The notes under the pieces are model-generated. The model was not told the DNA's origin. It worked only from the letters and a program-made list of their open reading frames with translations, and did no database searches. From assembly GCA_039545295.1 (NCBI GenBank), contig BCIK01000004.1, positions 1,055,389-1,119,388 of the forward strand: DNA of 64,000 bases. Direction: 5' to 3'. The translations under genes and the position numbers were made by a program. The stretch comes from Udeniomyces pyricola. Lineage: Eukaryota > Basidiomycota > Tremellomycetes > Cystofilobasidiales > Mrakiaceae. Below, one piece after another: positions 10,300-40,525 of this stretch (positions are counted from its first letter, which is position 1; every line of letters starts with the position of its first letter).

Positions 10300-11216
10300 T
10301 CTCTCGGAACGAATCTATCCATCGACCCAAATTCATCTCTTTTCGCGAAGATATAAGAAGAAAAATCCCCCCCCCCTCCTCTTTTTCTCTCTGCCCATCT
10401 CGTCTCGCTTGCTCGCTTACTTGCTAGCTCCGACTTCGCTATCTCTATCTCTACTCCCCTTGCTTTTCTTCTTCTTTTTTTTTCTTCTCTCCTTCTTGAA
10501 CTTTTTTTCTTGTTCTCATCTCCTTTGTTTCCATCTCCGTTTCTCTTTTCGTCTTTGTCTTGAAAAGAGAACAAAGAAAAAGAAGAAAAGAAGAAGAAAA
10601 AAATCACATGTTCGTTTGTTTCGATTTGCCCTCGATCCCCCTCCGCCTTCTTAAGCTTTTTTTTCTTTTCTCTTCTTTCCTTTTTCAAATTGGTTCCCCG
10701 GCTTCCTTTCTGCTTTCTCACCATGCGTCGATCGTCATCGTCTGTCAAGGAAAGCATTTCTAAAGAGAAGAAGAAAGAAAGAAAGTTAGAAGGAAAGGAG
10801 CGAACCATCATCTGTTTGTTCGGTCCGGTTCTCAGATGGCTGGACGTTGAATATTGAATATTGAATATTGAACCATGATGAGATGCCTGATGGCATGAGT
10901 ACCACAGTGATCGATCGGTACCGGCATCATCGCAGTAATTATTCCCCTTCGTTCTGGTTTTCTGATCCCCCCCCCCCCCCAGGCTTCCTTCCCCTCCTTT
11001 CGATATGACCAGAACCAATGCCACCCAGCAGGTTCAGTTCTCCCTCTGAGACGATGGCCGATCTGTCCCACACGAACCGAGGAAGCTCAAAACCCTAGAC
11101 ATACATGTGTATTCATACATATACAACCGTACCCATCAACCTAAACCGACCCCTCACCCCCCNNNNNNNNNNNNCCCCCTCCCCCCCAAAAAAAAACTCC
11201 AAACGACATCCATACT
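10300..11216. other. Convergent intergenic region with homopolymer tracts
   Basis: This lies between the fimbrin stop and the end of the next minus-strand gene. It is rich in T/TTC runs (10380-10700), AAG/GAA runs, a C run at about 10971-10981 and a short tandem TTGAATA repeat at 10847-10872. It also contains the assembly gap. No coding feature is supported; the long lysine- or phenylalanine-rich frames are products of the homopolymers. Confidence 0.6.
11163..11174. other. Assembly gap (12 N) within C-rich sequence
   Basis: Twelve undetermined bases flanked on both sides by C homopolymers, followed by a run of A. The C tracts are a likely cause of the failed base calling. It lies outside all proposed exons. 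Confidence 0.99.
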
Positions 11217-29773: not shown

Positions 29774-30285
29774 TTGCGCTTGTTGGTGTTGTGGTTGCTG
29801 CGTGGTTCCCATTGATATCCGTTCTTGTTCCTGTTCTTGTTTCTTTCTCGTCTTGCTCTGTCTCATGAATGCCTCGTACTATATATATACACAATGCATA
29901 TGCCGCCGGAGTACGGTGTTAAGCAAAATGAAGGACAAAAAAGAAACAATGAAAAAATGGGATTGGTGGTGAAACTATGCCTGCGACGAAGGGGGATAAT
30001 ATGTGTTGGTGGAGGTAATGGGAGAAACATGTATATATATATAGAGGCCATCGCAAGCTGCAGCTGATGGTTGCCAACGCAATCATGACACAGTCACACA
30101 TGGGCACACACACACACACAAACGACAGCACAGCCCAGCAGCAGCAGCTGGTTGGCCTCTTGCCCTCTGCTTTTTATGGTGGGAGCGTGTTGCGAGACGA
30201 GGTCGTCGTTTCTCTTTTGCCCTGTTCTCCACCATTCGTCCCTCCTCTCCCTCCTCTTCTTTCATCCCTCCTCACTCCTTTCACA
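29774..30285. promoter_or_regulatory. Intergenic region with TATA-like element upstream of the first eEF1B-gamma gene
   Basis: GTATATATATATAGAGG at about 30031-30047 is a plausible TATA element, though about 250 bases from the start codon. A short CA repeat (30105-30120) and a CAGCAGCAGCAGCTGG near-palindrome (30136-30151) follow. The last 80 bases are CT-rich up to TCACAATGG. No gene is seen. Confidence 0.45.
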
Positions 30286-33082
30286 ATGGCCATCGGAAAG
30301 CTCTACGCCCCCTCTGCCGTCTCCTTCAGGACTCGACGAGCCCTCGCCGTTGCTGCCTTCACTGAGCAGGAGCTCGAGCGACCCTCCTTCACCTTTGGTG
30401 AGACCAACAAGTCCGAGGAGTTCCTTTCCAAGGTTGGTCCTCGCTTTCTTTCCCCTTCTTTCCTTTGCTCAACAAGATGCTACTATCCTGGGCTTTTGGG
30501 TCTTGCATCTGTCCCATCTGTCCCTTTGCGGCATCCATCATCTCGTGACTTCTCCAAAGAGTAGATACTGATTGTATGATATGGCTTTTGTTGTCTCCTT
30601 CTTCCCCTTCGCCCCCTCCCGCTCCCGTACCCGCCCCGTTCGCCACTTTACCCTATGCCTCGCTTTTCACCATCACCCTCTAATCTCGACCTGACGTCGC
30701 GTTGCCCATGTCGATAGTTCCCCTACGGCAAGATCCCCGCCTTTGAGGGTACCGACGGCTTCACCCTCACCGAGGGAGCCGCCATCGCTTGGTACTGTTC
30801 GTGTCTTTGACGTTTGACTTGTCACAAAGGCATGGACCCAAGGCACGACGGGGTCGGGCTCGAAAATCTCGTTTCTCACAGCCGAGGCTGATGGAATCCA
30901 ATCGCTCTTTCCCTTCTCTTCTCTCTCTCTCTCTCTCCCCTTCTCTCCTCTCTTTCATTGCCCTGTATATGCGGCTTGCTCTCTTGCTTCGCTCTCGGTC
31001 TGTCCAGTCGCCTCGCTCGCCCCCAACTCTGGCTTGATCTCCACCGATGCCCAGACCAACGCTCAGATCGCCAAGTGGATCTCGTTCGCTGACCTCGAGG
31101 TAAGCTTCTCCTCTCCTAATCTATAGATGCCCCCTGACCTATCGTTCGTCAACTGATCCCCTGATATGTCTCGTTCGATGCCTCTTTTTCTCTCTTGCTC
31201 TTCTTTTCTTCCTTGTCCAGATCGCTTCGCGACTCGACCTCGCCACCGGCATGTTCAACAACTACGTTCCTTTCGTCAAGCCCGTTTTCCAGAACCGAAT
31301 CGACGCCGTCACCCGAGCCGTCACTTTCCTCGAGAACTACCTCGCCACCAAGACCTTCCTCATTGGTGACCGAATCACCCTTGCCGACATCACCGTCGCT
31401 TCCGTCCTCGCCGACGCTTTCTCCAAGTTCCTCGGACCTGAGGAGCAGAAGAAGTTCCCCAACTCCCTCCGATTCGAGCAGACGTGAGTGATTCTTTCCG
31501 CTCCAACGACAACAAAACCTTTGCCTGATGCATTATGTTGCGTGCGCGTGTGTGTGTGTGTGTGTGTGTGAGCTTGGTATCTGATGCGAATTTCCTTTCT
31601 CTCATGTCATTCTTGCCCCCCTCCTCTTTCCTTGCTTTCAGCGTTGTCAACCACCCCAAGATCGCCTCTGCTTTCGAGGGTGTCTCCCTCGCCACCGAGG
31701 CCGCTTCTTACACTCCCCCCAAGAAGGAGTCTGCCCCCAAGCCCGCCAAGGTTCGTAAAATAACAAGGTTGCAACAACCAAGAACACGAACAAAAAAAAA
31801 CACCCAGGACCCGAGAACCACATTCTCATTTCGTCTCGTCAATCTTCTCACTTTTTCGCTTTACCAGGAGGCTGCTGCCCCCAAGCCCAAGGCTGCTCCC
31901 AAGCCCAAGGAGGACGAGGAGGAGGAGGAGCCCTCGTTCGCTGACGCCCCTGCGGCCAAGAACCCGCTCGATGCGTTGCCGAAGTCGTCGATGAACTTGA
32001 TCGACCTCAAGGTCAAGTACTCGAACGCGGACACGAAGACGGAGTTCATTCCGTGGTTCTACGAGAACTTTGACAAGGAGGGCTACTCGGTCTGGAAGGT
32101 TGACTTCAAGTACAACGATGTGAGTGTGTCTTGCTGTTTGTCTTGTTGTGTGTCTTGTTGTTTGTGCTCGTGTGCTTGTGTTTGTGTGTCTTGTCGGTTG
32201 CGGTCGTGTGTTGGATGTGCTTGTGTGGTGGTTTGTTTGTGGTCGTACTCGTATGTCTGTCTGCTGCGGACGTGGACAGTGAAGAGCAGAGGCGTTTTGC
32301 TGGCTTTTTGGAGAGACTTGAGAAGGGCTGGAAATGTGAGGGTTTGGAGGGAGAGGAAGAGATGACAGTACAGCAGAGGTGGAAGATTCGGCCGGAAAGC
32401 ACAGAAGTGGGCACCGAACGACGTCGACCGGCTGGCACAAAACCAGCGACAGCGGACGGGCTCATGATCACGACAAAGAAAAAAAAAAGTGACATTGATA
32501 AATAATATAGTGACATCGCTGACGCATTCTTCTCCTTCTTTCTGCTCTTGTATTTCTCAACCATTTTCAACCACTACACAGGAGCTTACTCTCCCCTTCA
32601 TGTCGGCCAACCAGATCGGTGGCTTCTTTGCCCGACTTGAGGGTGCCCGAAAGGTGCGTTCTTTCTCGCTGGCTGACTTTCAGGCGACCGACCAGAGCGA
32701 TCTATGTCACAGAAGCAGGAAGAAAGAACATGATCCTGACGAGTTGCCACTTTGTTTTTCCTCGTCGCTGCTTGGTCATGTGTCTTTCTCTGTCGTGTGA
32801 TGTGTCTTTGTGTGTATCGTATCTGTGGCGACGAACGAACAGTACCTCTTCGGTTCTCTCGGTGTCCTCGGCAAGGCCAACGACTCGGTCATCACCGGTG
32901 TGTTCGTCGCCCGAGGCCAGGACATTGGTGCCGTTGCTTCGTTTGCGCCCGACTGGGAGTCGTACTCGTACACTCCTCTCGACATCACCAAGGAGGACGA
33001 CAAGAAGTTCTTTGAGGGTGCTTGCGAGTGGGAGCTGACTGTCGACGGCAAGTCGTGGGCCGACGGTAAGGTCTTCAAGTAA
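30286..33082 (+). CDS. TEF3: Elongation factor 1-gamma (eEF1B-gamma), tandem copy 1
   Basis: Structural subunit of the eEF1B nucleotide-exchange complex that recharges eEF1A during translation. Eight exons: 30286-30432, 30718-30796, 31008-31099, 31221-31483, 31642-31750, 31868-32119, 32582-32653 and 32843-33082, 417 residues. The GST-like N-terminal domain (about 1-210) shows FPYGKIPAFEG, LTEGAAIAWY and FLIGDRITLADI. A Lys/Ala/Pro and acidic linker (KPKAAPKPKEDEEEEEP) follows. The EF1G C-terminal domain (about 255-417) shows NPLDALPKSSMNLIDLK, WFYENFDKEGYSVWK and KANDSVITGVFVARGQD. The exon layout is identical to the next gene. The C-terminal exons are almost base-for-base the same as that gene's. 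Intron 5 starts near a GT microsatellite (31543-31570). The symbol follows yeast naming; yeast also has the paralogue CAM1. Confidence 0.95.
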
Positions 33083-33976
33083 ACAGTGTTGGAGTTGTAT
33101 GCTCTGATTCTGTGGTACTGAGGATCGAGTTGGTTTTAGAGGAAGGGAGGATGGATGTGGTAGGCGTGAGGAAGGAGGAGAAGTAAAGGGGAAGGACGTT
33201 GTTTAGTGGACGTTGAGAAGAAGCAGCGATGCCATGTCTTTTTTTTTTGTCCGACCAGAATGCTCTATCTCTGATTTCCTTCCATTTGAACAAGCGACAA
33301 AGTCAAGCCATATGAGATATACGACATATGGCGACATGGATGTCTTTTCTTTCTCTTCTTTTCGGCGAGATCCGATGACACCATCGAGGAGCGTTTCGAC
33401 GTTTGTGTCGATGTCGAAATCGGCGCTTTTGATGCGCCGGGGGGACGCGAGGTGTTCTGTAAGATTCTCATCTGTCGTTCATTTCCTCGAGGCCGAGAGT
33501 GAGCTATATGCATCCTCACCTATGTATCTGCCGTTGGTGAGATCACATGGGTTTAGTAAGGGAACAGACTGCAAAGGACGTTGCGTCTGGAGGCCGATCT
33601 TACTGCTCGTTCGAAGAGGCACTAATGAAGATTCGGACTTGACCGCTTTCGCGGCCTCTTGATTTGGCAAACGCAACGTCTTACTCGCTCTCAAGGCCAA
33701 TCGATCGGATCAAACGCCACTCTCACGAAAACGAGAGAAACATTCAAGCAAAAGAAGAAGAGAGACAGGTCAAGATGAGAATGGAGAGAGAGACAGAAAA
33801 AAGCGACTCCAAAAGAAAAGAAAAAAAGTGGGAACGATCTCAATCCGTGCTTTTCCCCTCTTCTCTCTTTCTCCCCCCTGATCTTCCTCCCTTCTGCCAC
33901 TTGACCCCACCCTCTCCGGCCCCTTTTCGTCAATCTCTCCACAGCCTACTACTCATCCTCCCTAGTCTATCGAATC
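33083..33976. promoter_or_regulatory. Intergenic region between the two eEF1B-gamma genes
   Basis: Spacer of about 900 bases holding the 3' end of copy 1 and the promoter of copy 2. The last 150 bases before the start codon are strongly CT-rich. No clear TATA box is seen and no similarity to the 5' flank of copy 1 is obvious by eye. No gene is supported. Confidence 0.5.
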
Positions 33977-36900
33977 ATGTCTGTCGGAACTCTTTACGCT
34001 CCCCTCACCGGCCCTTCCTTCAGGATTCGTCGGGTTCTCGCCGTCGCAGCCTACACCGACCAGGAGCTTGAGCGACCCTCTCCGTTCACGTTCGGCGTCA
34101 CCAACAAGTCGGAAGAGTTCCTCGCCAAGGTCGGTTCTTTTTTTTTTCTGGCTTAGCAGCTTGATTCCTATTCTTCAGTGCTATCTGAGACCAAGAGAGG
34201 ACGCGAAAGTAAACGCTTCAACCAGACGTGCCTGCTCAAGGCGACGATGATACTGGTGCTGCTGCTGTGGCACGACCTGATACTGATAGAAACCTCCCCG
34301 CTCCCTGTCATCCCTCTACCCACTATCCTTCGTCTTCAAATCCGCTCTTATCTTGTCCACGTCTTCCTTGAAATCCCGGCGTTATCTCTCGGTCTTGTTT
34401 TGTCATCCTCCATCATCTTGTCTGGCCCAACAATAGTTCCCTCACGGCAAGGTCCCTGCTTTCGCTGGCAACGACGGCTTCAACCTCACCGAGGGCGCCG
34501 CCATCGCCACTTACCGTTCGTTGCAAATCGTTCCCCTCCTCGTCTGGTTATCCCTTCCATCACATGCTAAGGAGGATGGGAGAAAGCCATGCATGTGCGA
34601 TGTAGCCTTGTACTAGCCTCGAACTCCCAACTGACATCTTTGGGTAACTCTTCTGGACGACCCGCATATACTACTTGACCCTTTGTCAAACCACCTCCAC
34701 ACAAATATCGGCTTCCTACCTTCTGCCGCCTATGCATCATTGTTGTTCTCTACCACAAAACCCCAAACCTTTTGTACCTTTGCACGAACGTATGACGGTC
34801 ATTAGTCGCTGGTCTCGCTCCCAACTCGGGCCTCGTCTCGTCGGACCCTCACACGGCCGCGCTGATTGCCCAATGGGTGTCGTTTGCTGATCTCGAGGTG
34901 AGGGGGGTTTCTTCACCTTAGTTTTCTCGTTTCTTACCTAGCTGAACAGCCATCCCAAGCAAGGACAGCTTTGTCGAATCGACCCATACCCATCTCCGAA
35001 GATCTCCACTGACATGTGGGTCGACCCTTTTAATTTTCTTTCCCCTTCTCCTGATCATCCTTCTCAGCTCGCCGCCCGGTTCGAAGTCTGCACCGGCATG
35101 TTCGTCAACCTCATCCCCTTCGTCAAGCCCGTCTTCCAAAACCGATTCGACAAGGTCCTTCACGCTATGGCTACGCTCGAGGCTCACCTCGCCAACCGAA
35201 CGTTCCTCGTCGGCGACCGCATCACCTTGGCCGACATCGCCGTCGGATCGGCTCTTGCCGATGGGTTCGCCCGGTTCTTTGGCCCGGAGGAGCAGAAGAA
35301 GTTCCCCAACGCGTTGAGGTTCGAGCAGACGTGAGTGTTGACATTGGATAGACAGTGCTTTGCATTTTTGTTTTCGTCTTTCTCGTTTCAAGGAGTGCAT
35401 CTCTGTATAATGGGTGTCGACCATGAGGAGATGATTGCTGTAAACGATGTAGAGAGTGCATCATCTCCAGACCGACAAGAGGAGAGAGAGATGAGCGCTT
35501 TGACGGCAGTATCGCCATCTTTTCATTCCTTTATCTTGTCATCCTCCTTTTTTTTTTTTTTCTTCTCTTTTTTGATTTTTTTTTCTTCTTCTTTGACTCA
35601 ATCTCTCGAGCTACTACTGGACGTCCTTCCCATCTCTCCTCTCAAACCTTACTGACATTCATTCCTTGCCTTGCCCCCGACTCCTTCCCCACCCCTTATC
35701 GGCTCCCTCTATCGACCGGATCATTCCACCCCTCTTTGCTATCCCCCCCCCCCTTCACACATCCTTCAATTTCGCCCTCGCCCGTCTCATGGGAATGTTT
35801 CCAGCATCGTCAACCACCCCAAGATTGCTCCCGTTTACGCTGACGTCTCGGTCACCAAGGAGGCTGCCGTCTACACTCCCCCTAAGAAGGAGTCGGCCCC
35901 GGCCAAGCCCGCCAAGGTGCGTTGTATGAGCCTCTCTTGTAGATCGATCGATCCCCTTCCTCCCTTCCCCCTTTCATATTCCTCTTTGTCATGACAAGTG
36001 CGCATTGAACGAGAAATAAGACAATCTCGGATAGTAGGATGAGCGGAGGGGGGGGGAGGGGGGGGGGAGGGATGACGGCATGCGAATGTCAACGATCGTT
36101 GACCCTGTCTTTTTGTCTTCTTCTTTCTTTCGCTTTTCGCTTTATCAGGAGGCTGCTGCTCCCAAGCCCAAGGCTGCTCCCAAGCCCAAGGAGGCCGACG
36201 ATGAGGAGGAGGAGCCCTCGTTCGCTGACGCTCCTGCGGCCAAGAACCCGCTCGATGCGTTGCCGAAGTCGTCGATGAACTTGATCGACCTCAAGGTCAA
36301 GTACTCGAACGCGGACACGAAGACGGAGTTCATTCCGTGGTTCTACGAGAACTTTGACAAGGAGGGCTACTCGGTCTGGAAGGTTGACTTCAAGTACAAC
36401 GATGTGAGTGTGTCTTGCTGTTTGTCTTGTTGTGTGTCTTGTTGTTTGCGCTCGTGTGCTTGTGTTTGCGGTCGTGTGTTGTTTGTGCTCGTGTGCTCGT
36501 GTGCTTGTGTTTGTGTGTCGGTGTGTGTTGCGGGTGTGCAGAGCAAAGGTGTTCTGCTGGCTTTTTGGAGAGATCTGGCAGGTGCTGGAAGGGCGGGAGA
36601 TGTGGGACTTTTGGAAGAAGTGGAAGAAGAAGCAGAGACGACAGACAGGAGAGGTGGAAGATTCGGTCGAAAAGCAAGAATGTCCAATGAAGTATTGGTG
36701 GCAGCGAACGACGTACGACTGTCATGTTGTTTGTTACACGTCAATCGAAGGGCACGACACATGCGGCAGGGAGGCTATAGGCACCACACACACACAAAAG
36801 AGACATGCATATATTGGCTTTGCTGACACATTTCTCCCTTCTTTTCCGTTGTTGTTGTTGTTGTTGTCATTGTCTTCTCTGTGAATTGTTGTAACTCCCA

Positions 36901-37444
36901 TCCTTTCCATTCCCCACCTACACAGGAGCTTACTCTCCCCTTCATGTCGGCCAACCAGATCGGTGGCTTCTTCGCCCGACTTGAGGGTGCCCGAAAGGTA
37001 CGTTCTATCTGACTGTTGAGGCAACCGACTTTGATCTTGGAGGCCGAATATAGCAAGCTGTGAAAGAGCAGGAAGATAGCATGGTGCTAACGAGTCGCCG
37101 GGTTTATCTCTCTTGTCCTTTTTCCCCTGTACCTTTCTCTGCCATTGTTGTCTGTCGTGTGATGTGTCTTTGTGTGTATCGTATCTGTGGCGACGAACGA
37201 ACAGTACCTCTTCGGTTCTCTCGGTGTCCTCGGCAAGGCCAACGACTCGGTCATCACCGGTGTGTTCGTCGCCCGAGGCCAGGACATTGGTGCCGTTGCT
37301 TCGTTTGCGCCCGACTGGGAGTCGTACTCGTACACTCCTCTCGACATCACCAAGGAGGACGACAAGAAGTTCTTTGAGGGTGCTTGCGAGTGGGAGCTGA
37401 CTGTCGACGGCAAGTCGTGGGCCGACGGTAAGGTCTTCAAGTAA
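33977..37444 (+). CDS. Elongation factor 1-gamma (eEF1B-gamma), tandem copy 2
   Basis: Paralogue of the preceding gene with the same eight-exon plan: 33977-34129, 34437-34515, 34806-34897, 35068-35330, 35805-35916, 36149-36403, 36926-36997 and 37205-37444, 421 residues. The GST-like half is clearly related but diverged: FPHGKVPAFAGNDGFNL and TGMFVNLIPFVKPVFQNRFD against FPYGKIPAFEGTDGFTL and TGMFNNYVPFVKPVFQNRID. From the linker on, the protein is nearly identical to copy 1, with EADDEEEEP in place of EDEEEEEP. The last exon appears identical at all 240 bases, and exon 7 differs at one silent base. All splice sites and the frame are intact, so it should be functional. Introns 1-5 differ from copy 1 in length and sequence, and intron 5 contains long G runs (36049-36067). 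Confidence 0.93.
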
Positions 37445-37808
37445 AGAAGAAGAAGACAAAAACCAAAGAGGAAAGTAAGGAGAGGAGAAGCAGACGGCGA
37501 AGAGGTGCCCCCCCCCCCTCCCCGCTGCCTCGTTCAATCTGACGAGATGTTGAGGATAGAGAGGGAAGAGCAAAAGACGATTCATGTTTTTTTTTTTGGA
37601 CGTGTACAAAGGCAAGGAGGACCCAAGACAGAGAGAAACGAAAAAAAAAAGAAGAACCATTCAACGTAAAAACCTTACCGAGAATGTATATACATATCCA
37701 TACACCGACACCTGCCTCAGTCATCCACACCTCTCCCGGTTTCCTCCCCTCCAATCTCGCCCTAGGTGTTATATACGTAGTCGTACAAACGAATAGTAAC
37801 ATCCGTCC
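37445..37808. other. Convergent 3' region
   Basis: The 3' flanks of eEF1B-gamma copy 2 and the hydrolase gene meet here. It contains a C run (37508-37520), a T run (37587-37598) and an A run (37642-37650). No gene is seen. Confidence 0.5.
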
Positions 37809-40525
37809 TCACAGCTTACTCTGTCTGTGTACTTCCCGTTGCCCTTCTCCTAAATATTGCACATCGTCATCACGCCGTTCCGCAAATTCACTCTTAGTCC
37901 TTCTAGCAGTTGTGACGTCGTCTCGTGATCTTTGATGATCCTGATGATGAGCCAACGGACGGGTGATAATGGTCTGGAACCACTCCGCCAAAATCGTCCC
38001 CATTTCCTTGGGTCGATGTTGCGGAAGGAGATGGCCCGAGCTCTCGACGGACACGTTACTGTTGACGAATCCGGGTGGATCGCGAGAAGAAAGATGAGGA
38101 TGTTTGAGATGTCTGTCGTTCATATCGTCGAGGAAATGGACAAGTTGGTGGCGGGTTTCAGGAGGCCCGGACCTGGATGGGATATACGATGCGATGGAGG
38201 CAGGCAGACCGGGCATGGGTGCGAATTAAATACATGGCCCATGGGAGAGGAGTCAGACAAAGGGAGGGAGTTGAGGGAATCCCATCAGCTCCAGGCACAT
38301 CACTTCTCAAGAAGCCGCGAAAAACGCAGGAGTCCAGAAACCAAAAAAAAAAAAAAAAAAATCAAGGGAAAAGGCAAAGAAAAACCAAGAAAGAAAGTAA
38401 AACGCATGAATGCATAGTTCAAAGGAAACGACGTACACCCAATCCTGCCCTACCTCGACCCATTGGACCGCTCGGCACTTCTTTCCGACTTTCTGACCGG
38501 ATCGTAGCCGATTCCAGACCTGAGCGATCGTAAAGTCCGGATCGGCAAAGATCAACGTCTCGCTCCATCGCGGGCAGCGGAGCGTGACGGGTCCTTCCGA
38601 TGCGATCGTATCGTCTGGGGTTGGAGCGGCAGGCCCCTCGGCTCCTACTAATCGACCAACAGCGGGGGTTCCTTCAAGGATCGAATTTGAAGGAATGGAA
38701 TTCAGACTGGGTTGACTGTTGAGAAAATGAGAAAGGGGAATCAATCCGGCTTGGACGTAGGACTCGAGCTGACGGGGGTCAAAGAGGGAGAAAAACGGTG
38801 AGTTGGAAAGATGGTGATGGGCTTCCTTCCTATATCAAAAACAGGTAGCAAGGGATACAAGGGTTAGGATACCCAAGAGTCCTTCAGATAGATTAGCAAA
38901 GCTTGAATGGATTCGAAAACATCGTAACAGCCTTGTCGTGGTAGTCAGTAGTAGTGATGGTGCTTTACCTCGAGTTCCACACATCCTTTCTCCCCATAGT
39001 CATTCTCAGCACGACCGCCCCATCGCTTCCCTTGAGCGCCATCATGTCATAGTACTCCGATTCTGGGTCCATAATCATGGGGTCTACCAACATCAACGCG
39101 TCCCACATTCCGCCCGTATATGCTTGCCAACCTATCTCCTGAGTCCCCTCCCTGGCACTGGCTGCCGAGGCACTAGCGGGACTGTTGATATTGACATGGA
39201 CTGGATCTGAGACAGCCTGTTGAAGGAGCAGTTCGGCCAGGAGGAATCCATTGGCTGACCAGGAATGACCAACGCCGACCAGGTTGCTTCGCCTTTCGGG
39301 GTTCGCCCGGCGGGGCAAGATGGCAGGTGGAGGGATCGAGGACGGCTCGAGGGGAAGATAGTGATGGACAAACGAGATGCTGTCACGTGCTTGGTCTTGC
39401 CAGCTGTATACGGGCATGAGGGGTGAGTCCGGGGGTGGAGAGCTCATAGGGGAAGAAAATAGCCTGAGACGAGATCGAAACAGGACCAGACGAAATAATC
39501 CAAGAAAAATGGGTAAGTCTGACTGTGTATGTCTACCCAACCTGATTAAAGGGCGAGATTGTAATGCACCGACCATATCTCGGTGATGTTGACCGTCCTA
39601 GATGCCTCAAGCATCGTCAGCATGTACTGTATGGGCAAGATCCAATTCTGAAAGCTCGTCCAGAGCGCAGCATCAGAAGAGACAGATTAGCTCTAAGATC
39701 TATCTGGCCGAGCCAGCTGACGCAAAAGACATTTGAGAAAGTCGATCGAGCATTCCAACCCAGGAAGTACTGATCGTGTCCGAAGATCTGAAAGACGATC
39801 TGCATCGTCGTCATCATCTCAACGATTCGGACGCATGTTGAACGCACCTCGGCTGGGAGCCCATTCGCATGCCCCTGCGGATGTCGAAAGGGTTCAAACA
39901 TAATCAGTGCCCAAGCTCCACAGCAGATTTGAAGTGGATCCTATTGTGAGTTAGGCTCCATCGAGCGAGTACCCATCCGAATCGATGAACCAACACGTAC
40001 CATCACCATCGTCATCTCCTCGACCGGCGCGGCCGACCGCATCTTCGGCGTCTTGTTGATCTTCCTGAACCTTCTCACCAAACTCTCAGCAGCAGCAGCA
40101 GCAGCAGCGACTCCTCCTTCTGTCGATGTCTTATCCCAACCATGCTCCTCCCCACGTTGTCCCTTCGCAACTGCTTCGAAATCGACCTTGATCAATTCGT
40201 CCGTCTGCTTCGCGATCCGCTCGTTCCGCTGTTCTCTCGTCTCGACCGCCGGAGCTGGGGGATAGCTCTCTTGGGCTGTCGGATGATTCGGCGCAAAAGA
40301 AGCTTGGTACGAGCGAGGGTAAGCGGAAGGAACGAGATGGATGGTTGAGGTGTAGCCTGGGAGTGTGTGGAGTGCGTCGGTGGTTGGAGGAAGAGGATAG
40401 TGATGCTGTGAGAAAGAAGAAGTCGGAGGTGGGAGGAGTGGGATGGGAAAGGGAAAGATAGGTGGGGTCGAGGAAGGGGAGAGTCGACCGTTTGCTGGGG
40501 ATGATAAAGAAGGAAAGGAAGGCAT
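37809..40525 (-). CDS. Alpha/beta hydrolase with C-terminal peroxisomal signal SKL (Lpx1-like)
   Basis: Multi-exon gene ending at stop 37809. Exon pieces in order: start to about 40007; one beginning DPLQICCGAWALIMFEPF with GHANGLPAE (the HANGFP-type turn of this hydrolase group); a segment with LPIQYMLTMLEASRTVNITEIW; then YSWQDQARDSISFVHHYLP and LVGVGHSWSANGFLLAELL, whose GHSWS is the nucleophile elbow GxSxG. Next come MLVDPMIMDPES, MGRKDVWNSR, PVTLRCPRWSETLIFADP and finally ESSGHLLPQHRP, giving the catalytic His. This series matches the fungal alpha/beta hydrolase group that includes yeast peroxisomal lipase Lpx1. The protein ends REVHRQSKL-stop, a canonical PTS1, so peroxisomal location is predicted. 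The substrate is not known. The start at 40525 is a choice; an in-frame ATG at 40621 would add 32 residues. The Pro-rich N-terminal 100 residues are unusual. Internal exon ends are approximate. Confidence 0.72.

What the first reader, a model, noticed from the sequence alone, without database searches (positions are those of the whole stretch)
30286..37444. Tandem eEF1B-gamma paralogues with diverged GST halves and near-identical C-terminal halves
The two genes share exon number and phases. Exons 1-5 (GST-like domain) differ at many amino acids and in all introns. Exon 6 from about its middle, exon 7 and exon 8 are almost base-identical. The last 292 bases of each gene (32791-33082 and 37153-37444), including the end of intron 7, look identical; just after the stop codon the sequences are unrelated. 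Identity that stops abruptly and extends into an intron fits recent gene conversion better than protein-level selection alone. It keeps one eEF1B-binding module while two different GST-like heads evolve.
Basis: partly seen in the sequence, partly recalled or inferred. Interest (0 to 1): 0.75.

Follow-up and report, generated by a model that had tools for sequence, protein, structure and literature searches.

The report
Tandem translation-factor genes sharing tails
Two neighbouring copies of a yeast translation-factor gene have drifted far apart in their front halves while their rear halves have been copied from one to the other, so the cell probably makes two different heads on one shared tail; the process is known, the place is new.

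Summary
Two intact tandem eEF1B-gamma genes (A 30286-33082, B 33977-37444; eight exons each) have diverged 5' parts (dS 0.855; heads 69% identical; introns 1-5 within shuffled controls). From codon 258 to the stop they differ by one silent base, and 295 bases across the end of intron 7 and exon 8 are identical. The EF1G domain begins at residue 260. Interlocus gene conversion explains this much better than protein selection: silent differences are 58 of 166 codons before the switch and 3 of 183 after (p 5e-18), and identity enters introns. One event does not suffice: introns 6 and 7 are only about 75% alike between near-identical exons. Codon use hints that B was donor. Head-diverged, tail-similar pairs appear in other fungi at protein level (6 of 10 pairs seen; Tulasnella best supported, Hypsizygus a clear counter-example). 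A known process in a new place, possibly recurrent. No DNA of relatives and no reads were available.

The parts
30286..33082 (+). Gene A, eEF1B-gamma, 417 aa; exons 30286-30432, 30718-30796, 31008-31099, 31221-31483, 31642-31750, 31868-32119, 32582-32653, 32843-33082
   Evidence: Pfam GST_N, GST_C, EF1G
33977..37444 (+). Gene B, eEF1B-gamma, 421 aa; exons 33977-34129, 34437-34515, 34806-34897, 35068-35330, 35805-35916, 36149-36403, 36926-36997, 37205-37444
   Evidence: start corrected in 7; Pfam
30286..31750 (+). A: diverged GST-like head and first part of the linker (exons 1-5); introns 1-5 within shuffled controls against B
   Evidence: dS 0.855 over alignment columns 1-236; introns
33977..35916 (+). 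B: diverged GST-like head and first part of the linker (exons 1-5)
31868..31948 (+). A: transition zone (linker, codons 231-257): two silent changes, one Glu/Asp change and one codon indel against B 36149-36232
31949..32164 (+). A: identical patch 1 (codon 258 to 45 bp into intron 6), equals B 36233-36448
   Evidence: codon number
36233..36448 (+). B: identical patch 1
32120..32219 (+). A: start of intron 6, 87% T+G in 100 bp (B start of intron 6, 36404-36503: 85%). 100-bp stretches of 87% or more T+G or A+C start in only two clusters of the window, 32119-32150 and 36419-36439
32165..32573 (+). A: diverged part of intron 6 between identical patches (intron beyond its first 45 bp: 267 of 372 aligned bases identical, with many indels)
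32574..32655 (+). A: patch 2 (last 8 bp of intron 6, exon 7, first 2 bp of intron 7), one silent mismatch at 32629; equals B 36918-36999
36918..36999 (+). B: patch 2
32656..32788 (+). A: diverged part of intron 7 (intron without 56 identical edge bases: 81 of 128 aligned bases identical)
32789..33083 (+). A: identical patch 3 (last 54 bp of intron 7, exon 8, stop, one base beyond), equals B 37151-37445
37151..37445 (+). B: identical patch 3

Best explanation
Two tandem eEF1B-gamma genes arose by duplication, probably after the split from the Phaffia lineage (inferred from head distances). Since then interlocus gene conversion has repeatedly overwritten the 3' part, from about codon 258 in exon 6 to the stop, which is the EF1G C-terminal domain (the pattern is shown, the process inferred). 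At least one older event covered exon 6 to the stop, because introns 6 and 7 are still about 75% alike while introns 1-5 are at the shuffled level. Later short patches re-made the exons and their intron edges, because these are near identical while the introns between them are not. Conversion stops on the 3' side where clear homology ends, one base past the stop codon, and on the 5' side in the indel-prone linker and the diverged heads, which probably no longer match well enough to recombine (inferred; alignable head exon pieces are 76-84% identical and the introns between them unrelated). The latest copying probably went from B to A (suggested by codon use). The functional result, inferred, is two eEF1B-gamma proteins with one shared C-terminal domain and two different GST-like heads that would dock the single eEF1B-alpha exchange factor into two kinds of complex.
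For: Silent differences 58/166 codons in the 5' part against 3/183 in the 3' part, Fisher p 5.2e-18; longest identical run 87 codons, permutation p <= 5e-5. Identity runs 45 bp into intron 6 and over the last 54 bp of intron 7. Three tiers: introns 1-5 at shuffled level, introns 6-7 at 75%, exons near identical; 3 of 183 silent codons against 152 of 500 remaining intron 6-7 sites differ, Fisher p 4.5e-20 (unlike units, so only a rough comparison). Switch at codon 258; EF1G Pfam match and the 1pbu alignment both start at residue 260 of A. Protein level: of 1087 pairs (A/B included) with head identity within 5 points of A/B, A/B has the highest tail identity; in the first, smaller set 0 of 655 other pairs reached 100%, maximum 95.7%. 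Heads: A-B 69.0%, A-Phaffia 60.3%, B-Phaffia 57.0%. Head exon pieces 76-84% identical. NCG codons (Ser, Pro, Thr, Ala) are 20/50 in the tail, 17/81 in B's 5' part, 3/85 in A's 5' part (tallies, tests). One EF1_GNE match in the genome.
Against: No DNA of a close relative was available, so donor, timing and repetition cannot be polarised directly. The codon log-likelihood favours B over A as source by 14 units, but its bootstrap interval includes zero (-17 to 43), and the tail differs from B's 5' part too (p 0.027); a general 5'-to-3' trend in codon use was not excluded. By residual from a fitted head-tail curve over all 21,113 pairs, A/B is third, behind two pairs with 31% head identity where the fit is poor. 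Assembly homogenisation of blocks of 82-295 bp cannot be excluded without reads. The claim of at least two events rests on unequal intron and exon divergence; much faster intron evolution would weaken it. The faint similarity in the 3' flank is not explained.
Confidence: 0.87

Rival explanations
1. Purifying selection on the C-terminal domain alone keeps the two tails the same, without any exchange of DNA.
For: The C-terminal domain is generally more conserved than the head, e.g. 58.8% head against 83.1% tail between Papiliotrema and Kockovaella. With Ustilago as outgroup the A/B tail is not faster than Phaffia's (12 against 18 changes).
Against: Silent sites are nearly as identical as amino acids (3/183 codons differ), and 45 and 54 intron bases are identical. 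The tails are not especially conserved against relatives: A/B-Phaffia 67.5%, below Phaffia-Papiliotrema 78.8%. Relative-rate tests put more tail changes on A than on Phaffia with 5 of 6 outgroups, 4 of them below p 0.05 uncorrected.
Confidence: 0.03
2. One single recent event joined an old diverged GST head to a fresh copy of the neighbour's 3' half (unequal crossing-over or partial duplication), with no further exchange.
For: The sharp switch at codon 258 and the loss of clear similarity after the stop fit one junction at each end.
Against: Introns 6 and 7 inside the supposed single tract are only about 75% alike with many indels, while the exons beside them are near identical.
Confidence: 0.06
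3. The near-identical 3' blocks are partly an assembly or polishing artefact in which two similar repeats were given one consensus.
For: The blocks are 82-295 bp, within reach of short-read collapse; the sequencing method is unknown; the window holds a 12-N run at 11163-11174.
Against: Identical and diverged stretches alternate within a few hundred bases. The same assembly keeps two eEF1A copies apart at 99.46% identity with 14 mismatches over 4.4 kb. Collapse could hide a few differences but would not create introns of intermediate similarity.
Confidence: 0.04

Closest known systems
Gene conversion between duplicated yeast histone and ribosomal-protein genes (Scienski, Fay and Conant 2015, PMC4700949; abstract and Discussion seen)
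   Same: Paralogues coding for parts of conserved complexes kept alike by conversion; the authors report amino-acid changes that appear biased to radical ones on converted branches (statistical support lacking by their own words), comparable with the changed but shared tail here.
   Different: Those are pairs left by the yeast genome duplication; here the genes are tandem and rich in introns, and the shared part is one protein domain.
Human fetal G-gamma and A-gamma globin genes (recalled; the searches did not list the original papers)
   Same: Tandem genes, conversion over part of the gene, tract edge at a TG-rich stretch in an intron.
   Different: Those copies are, as recalled, very similar; here the unconverted part is at dS 0.855. 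No role of the TG-rich stretch is shown here.
S. cerevisiae TEF3/CAM1 and TEF4, two eEF1B-gamma genes (PMC2705663 and PMC3240602, passages)
   Same: Two eEF1B-gamma genes with one eEF1B-alpha gene; the PMC2705663 authors suggest that the two gammas may bias exchange towards eRF3 or eEF1A.
   Different: Domain-wise conversion of TEF3/TEF4 was not examined here.
Eight-exon-independent protein pairs in Tulasnella and Botryobasidium (this study)
   Same: Diverged heads with unusually similar tails; in Tulasnella heads sort by paralogue while tails do not.
   Different: Tail identity 94-98%, no DNA examined, exon structure unknown, tail tree tests not significant.

Membership tests
eEF1B-gamma (EF-1 gamma) | N-terminal GST-like domain | tested here: met
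   GST_N and GST_C above Pfam cut-off in both copies; 5dqs_A aligned to residues 1-216 of A, E 7.8e-35 (only A searched)
eEF1B-gamma (EF-1 gamma) | C-terminal EF1G domain | tested here: met
   PF00647 E 6.8e-42 (A) and 7.8e-42 (B); 1pbu aligned to residues 260-417 of A
eEF1B-gamma (EF-1 gamma) | Binding to the exchange subunit and stimulation of exchange | not testable with these tools
   inferred from homology; one EF1_GNE match in the genome
Interlocus gene conversion / concerted evolution | Silent-site identity in a tract bounded by diverged silent sites | tested here: met
   58/166 against 3/183, p 5e-18
Interlocus gene conversion / concerted evolution | Identity extends into non-coding sequence | tested here: met
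   45 bp of intron 6, 54 bp of intron 7
Interlocus gene conversion / concerted evolution | Paralogue tails closer to each other than to the orthologue, heads older | tested here: met
   A-B tail 100%, A-Phaffia tail 67.5%; A-B head 69.0%, A-Phaffia head 60.3%. Protein level, one close outgroup; the duplication itself also post-dates that split, so this is a weak test
Interlocus gene conversion / concerted evolution | Closely related species share the head paralogy but convert tails separately | not testable with these tools
   no DNA or second-copy proteins of close relatives in hand. Analogue in Tulasnella: within-species tail pairing is the best of 24 permutations; paralogue clades in the tail tree are not rejected (p 0.085, 0.176)
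RNA-mediated (spliced cDNA) conversion | Homogenised exons without intron sequence | tested here: not met
   both copies keep introns 6 and 7 and share intron edges
Intron-encoded snoRNA keeping intron edges alike | Rfam match in the shared intron edges | tested here: inconclusive
   window 29800-38000: no match reached a gathering score; 3 weak miRNA matches (E 0.0037, 0.11, 0.38), none in the shared edges; fungal snoRNAs may be missing from the library

The most novel reading that the evidence does not exclude
Tandem eEF1B-gamma genes in several basidiomycete lineages independently keep one co-evolving C-terminal domain by domain-limited gene conversion, with selection preserving distinct GST-like heads against conversion, so that one exchange factor is built into two complexes with different targets.
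Probability: 0.3. Interest if true: 0.65.

Novelty: new member of a known kind. Interest (0 to 1): 0.45.

Why it matters
It is a clean natural case in which conversion has homogenised one protein domain of a housekeeping complex and spared the other. If heads are protected by selection, the two domains of one gene pair have separate histories, and specialised eEF1B complexes become a direct question. It also warns that trees built on whole eEF1B-gamma proteins can mix two histories. Similar protein pairs in other fungi make the idea testable by comparison.

Tried and rejected
Protein-level selection alone was rejected on silent and intron identity and on the non-conserved tail. Spliced-cDNA conversion was rejected because intron edges are shared. 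A single event was considered and judged unlikely from introns 6-7. A snoRNA in the shared intron edges was looked for with Rfam and not found.

The relative-rate test of the tail is not unanimous: 5 of 6 outgroups place more change on A than on Phaffia (31/13 p 0.0096; 26/9 p 0.006; 23/14 p 0.19; 26/12 p 0.034; 25/11 p 0.029; uncorrected), Ustilago the reverse (12/18, p 0.36). Mrakia shows a similar excess over Phaffia, so acceleration is not tied to duplication. Heads A and B do not differ in rate (18/25 with Phaffia, 16/11 with Mrakia as outgroup).

The codon likelihood test for donor direction was inconclusive. The reference codon set used 6 of 7 fetched segments; L015 was left out because it holds a stop. 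The reference (11/102 NCG) does not differ clearly from A's 5' part (p 0.092) or B's (p 0.065). One search used a wrong total for the reference set (105); one search repeats it with 102.

In one search the last 8 bp of intron 6, identical in both copies, were misplaced by the global alignment, so intron 6 identity is slightly understated.

Other species: 10 pairs of one organism name with two usable proteins, this one included, were read off the listings (best 120 rows each, so pairs can be missing; two Lentinula guzmanii proteins may come from different strains). Head is A residues 1-216, tail 258-417. Six of ten have tail identity in the top 3% of pairs with head identity within 5 points: this pair 1/1087, Botryobasidium 1/262, Tulasnella 424 2/820, 417 3/867, UAMH 9824 12/785, 403 6/226. 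Four do not: Punctularia 123/3219 (3.8%), Hypsizygus 495/723, Rickenella 105/270, Lentinula guzmanii 95/155. These ranks compare non-independent pairs and are descriptive. Tulasnella 427 was left out of that count because its second copy is partial (70.9% over 134 head columns, 95.1% tail). Scleroderma citrinum P0088/P0115 and Tulasnella 427/424 were computed but not counted, being from different genomes. The trees used 22 proteins chosen by me out of 207. In the Tulasnella permutation test the second 427 copy is partial and does not group clearly with the b copies; without it the means are 96.3% within and 94.7% between over three species.

Literature: no paper on conversion between eEF1B-gamma paralogues was among the rows listed (15 of 16; 15 of 79; 12 of 50; 12 of 39; 7 of 7; 10 of 57; 1 of 1; 12 of 101); the library holds open-licence papers only, and the unlisted rows were not seen.
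Full report
What is there. The window is C4:1055389-1119388 of a 25.0 Mb genome in 38 contigs. It carries two eEF1B-gamma genes head to tail on the + strand, 894 bp apart. Gene A spans 30286-33082 (417 aa) and gene B 33977-37444 (421 aa), eight exons each. Both have GST_N, GST_C and EF1G domains. DNA and domain searches of the whole genome find only these two places. The best-scoring protein for both is Phaffia rhodozyma (63% to A, 60% to B); Mrakia frigida is fourth for B (52%) and not among the 120 rows listed for A. Both belong to the Cystofilobasidiales, so the host is probably a basidiomycete yeast of or near that order; the organism itself was not identified.

The contrast along the gene. 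In alignment columns 1-236 there are 58 synonymous and 67 nonsynonymous codon differences in 233 codons, dS 0.855. In the remaining 184 codons there are 3 and 1, dS 0.025. Among codons that keep the amino acid, silent differences are 58/166 against 3/183, Fisher p 5.2e-18, and the longest identical run is 87 codons against a maximum of 72 in 20,000 permutations. From codon 258 of A to the stop a single silent difference remains, at codon 330. The Pfam EF1G match and the alignment to the solved C-terminal domain 1pbu both begin at residue 260 of A, so the shared part matches that domain almost to the residue.

Three tiers of non-coding divergence. Introns 1-5 and the 5' flank lie within 30 shuffled controls each. 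Introns 6 and 7 are 74.8% and 74.5% alike against shuffled means of 43-44%. The first 45 bp of intron 6 and the last 54 bp of intron 7 are identical. Of the remaining intron 6-7 sites 152 of 500 differ, against 3 of 183 silent codons (p 4.5e-20; the units differ, so this is rough). One event does not easily give near-identical exons beside introns that differ by more than a quarter, unless introns diverge very much faster. I infer an older conversion from exon 6 to the stop, then later short patches.

Why conversion and not selection. Selection on protein does not explain identical silent sites and intron edges. The tail is also not especially conserved: A/B against Phaffia is 67.5%, while Phaffia against the more distant Papiliotrema is 78.8%. 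Relative-rate tests show more changes on the A tail than on Phaffia's with 5 of 6 outgroups, 4 below p 0.05 uncorrected, and the reverse with Ustilago. So the two tails seem to have changed together. Mrakia shows a similar excess, so the acceleration may not be linked to duplication.

Age and direction. Head identities (A-B 69.0%, A-Phaffia 60.3%, B-Phaffia 57.0%) place the duplication after the Phaffia split, if heads never converted. The heads evolve at similar rates, with dN/dS about 0.22 over columns 1-236, so both appear to be under constraint. NCG codons (Ser, Pro, Thr, Ala) make up 20/50 in the tail, 17/81 in B's 5' part and 3/85 in A's (tail against A p 9e-8, against B p 0.027): the tail in A looks foreign to A and closer to B, suggesting B as the latest donor. 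A likelihood version was inconclusive, and a general 5'-to-3' trend in codon use was not excluded.

A possible edge signal. The first 100 bp of intron 6 are 87% T+G in A and 85% in B. Only three clusters in the 64 kb window reach 85% T+G or A+C: these two and one at 11111-11133. TG-rich intron DNA at a conversion edge recalls human fetal globin genes (recalled; not found). Since A and B are copies of each other this is one observation, and only suggestive.

Elsewhere. With the 207 proteins returned by the searches plus A and B, 21,113 pairs had enough columns. A/B has the highest tail identity of the 1087 pairs with similar head identity; by residual from a fitted curve over all pairs it is third, behind two pairs with 31% head identity. 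Of ten same-organism pairs seen, six rank in the top 3% of their band: this one, Botryobasidium (77.1% head, 98.1% tail), Tulasnella 424 (70.1, 98.1), 417 (69.9, 96.3), UAMH 9824 (70.4, 94.4) and 403 (81.5, 97.5). Punctularia (3.8%), Hypsizygus, Rickenella and Lentinula do not. In Tulasnella, a tree of 22 chosen proteins groups the heads by paralogue (b clade 99/97, a clade 80/86) and rejects the 424 pair as sisters (p 2.2e-5), whereas the tail tree joins the 424 pair (94/86). Paralogue clades in the tail tree are not rejected (p 0.085 and 0.176). Pairing within species is the best of 24 pairings for tails; for heads 5 of 24 do as well, itself included. This is supporting evidence, at protein level only, and the high general conservation of the tail limits it.

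What it probably does. A review calls eEF1B-gamma the scaffold of the exchange complex and lists structures of its N-terminal domain with the N-terminal domains of the alpha and beta subunits (PMC7160314, passages). This genome shows one EF1_GNE match, so two gamma proteins would share one exchange subunit. In baker's yeast the authors of PMC2705663 (passages) suggest that the TEF3 and TEF4 gammas may favour eRF3 and eEF1A respectively. By analogy, two heads on a shared tail may give two eEF1B complexes; this is inference. A model in which conversion is favoured because a complex co-evolves is proposed for histones in PMC4700949 (abstract and Discussion), there called speculative. A neutral version is as good here: tail DNA held similar by constraint stays able to recombine, while heads and most introns have drifted out of range.

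Limits. No DNA of close relatives and no reads were available. Recurrence, donor and selection on the heads remain inferences.

Noticed in passing
G000 contigs C10:942997-947422 and C29:288580-292999 (L020, L019): A segment of at least 4.4 kb with an eEF1A gene occurs twice at 99.46% identity (14 mismatches, 2 gap openings), one copy close to the end of contig C10; recent duplication or redundant assembly.
   Followed up: partly
11111-11174: 100-bp stretches strongly biased to T+G or A+C start at 11111-11133, next to the window's only N run (12 N at 11163-11174).
   Followed up: no
36734-37660 (- strand): A 308-codon open frame lies antisense to the 3' part of gene B; no Pfam match, probably chance.
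   Followed up: partly
P0002 (Tulasnella sp. 427, 510 aa): By eye the protein has extra GST-like sequence after the EF1G domain, which looks like a fused tandem gene model (sequence printed).
   Followed up: no
A residues 277 and 279 (and the same in B): Positions that are Trp and Arg in all 19 compared relatives are Leu and Val in both copies; 8 of 71 near-invariant tail positions are changed in both.
   Followed up: no
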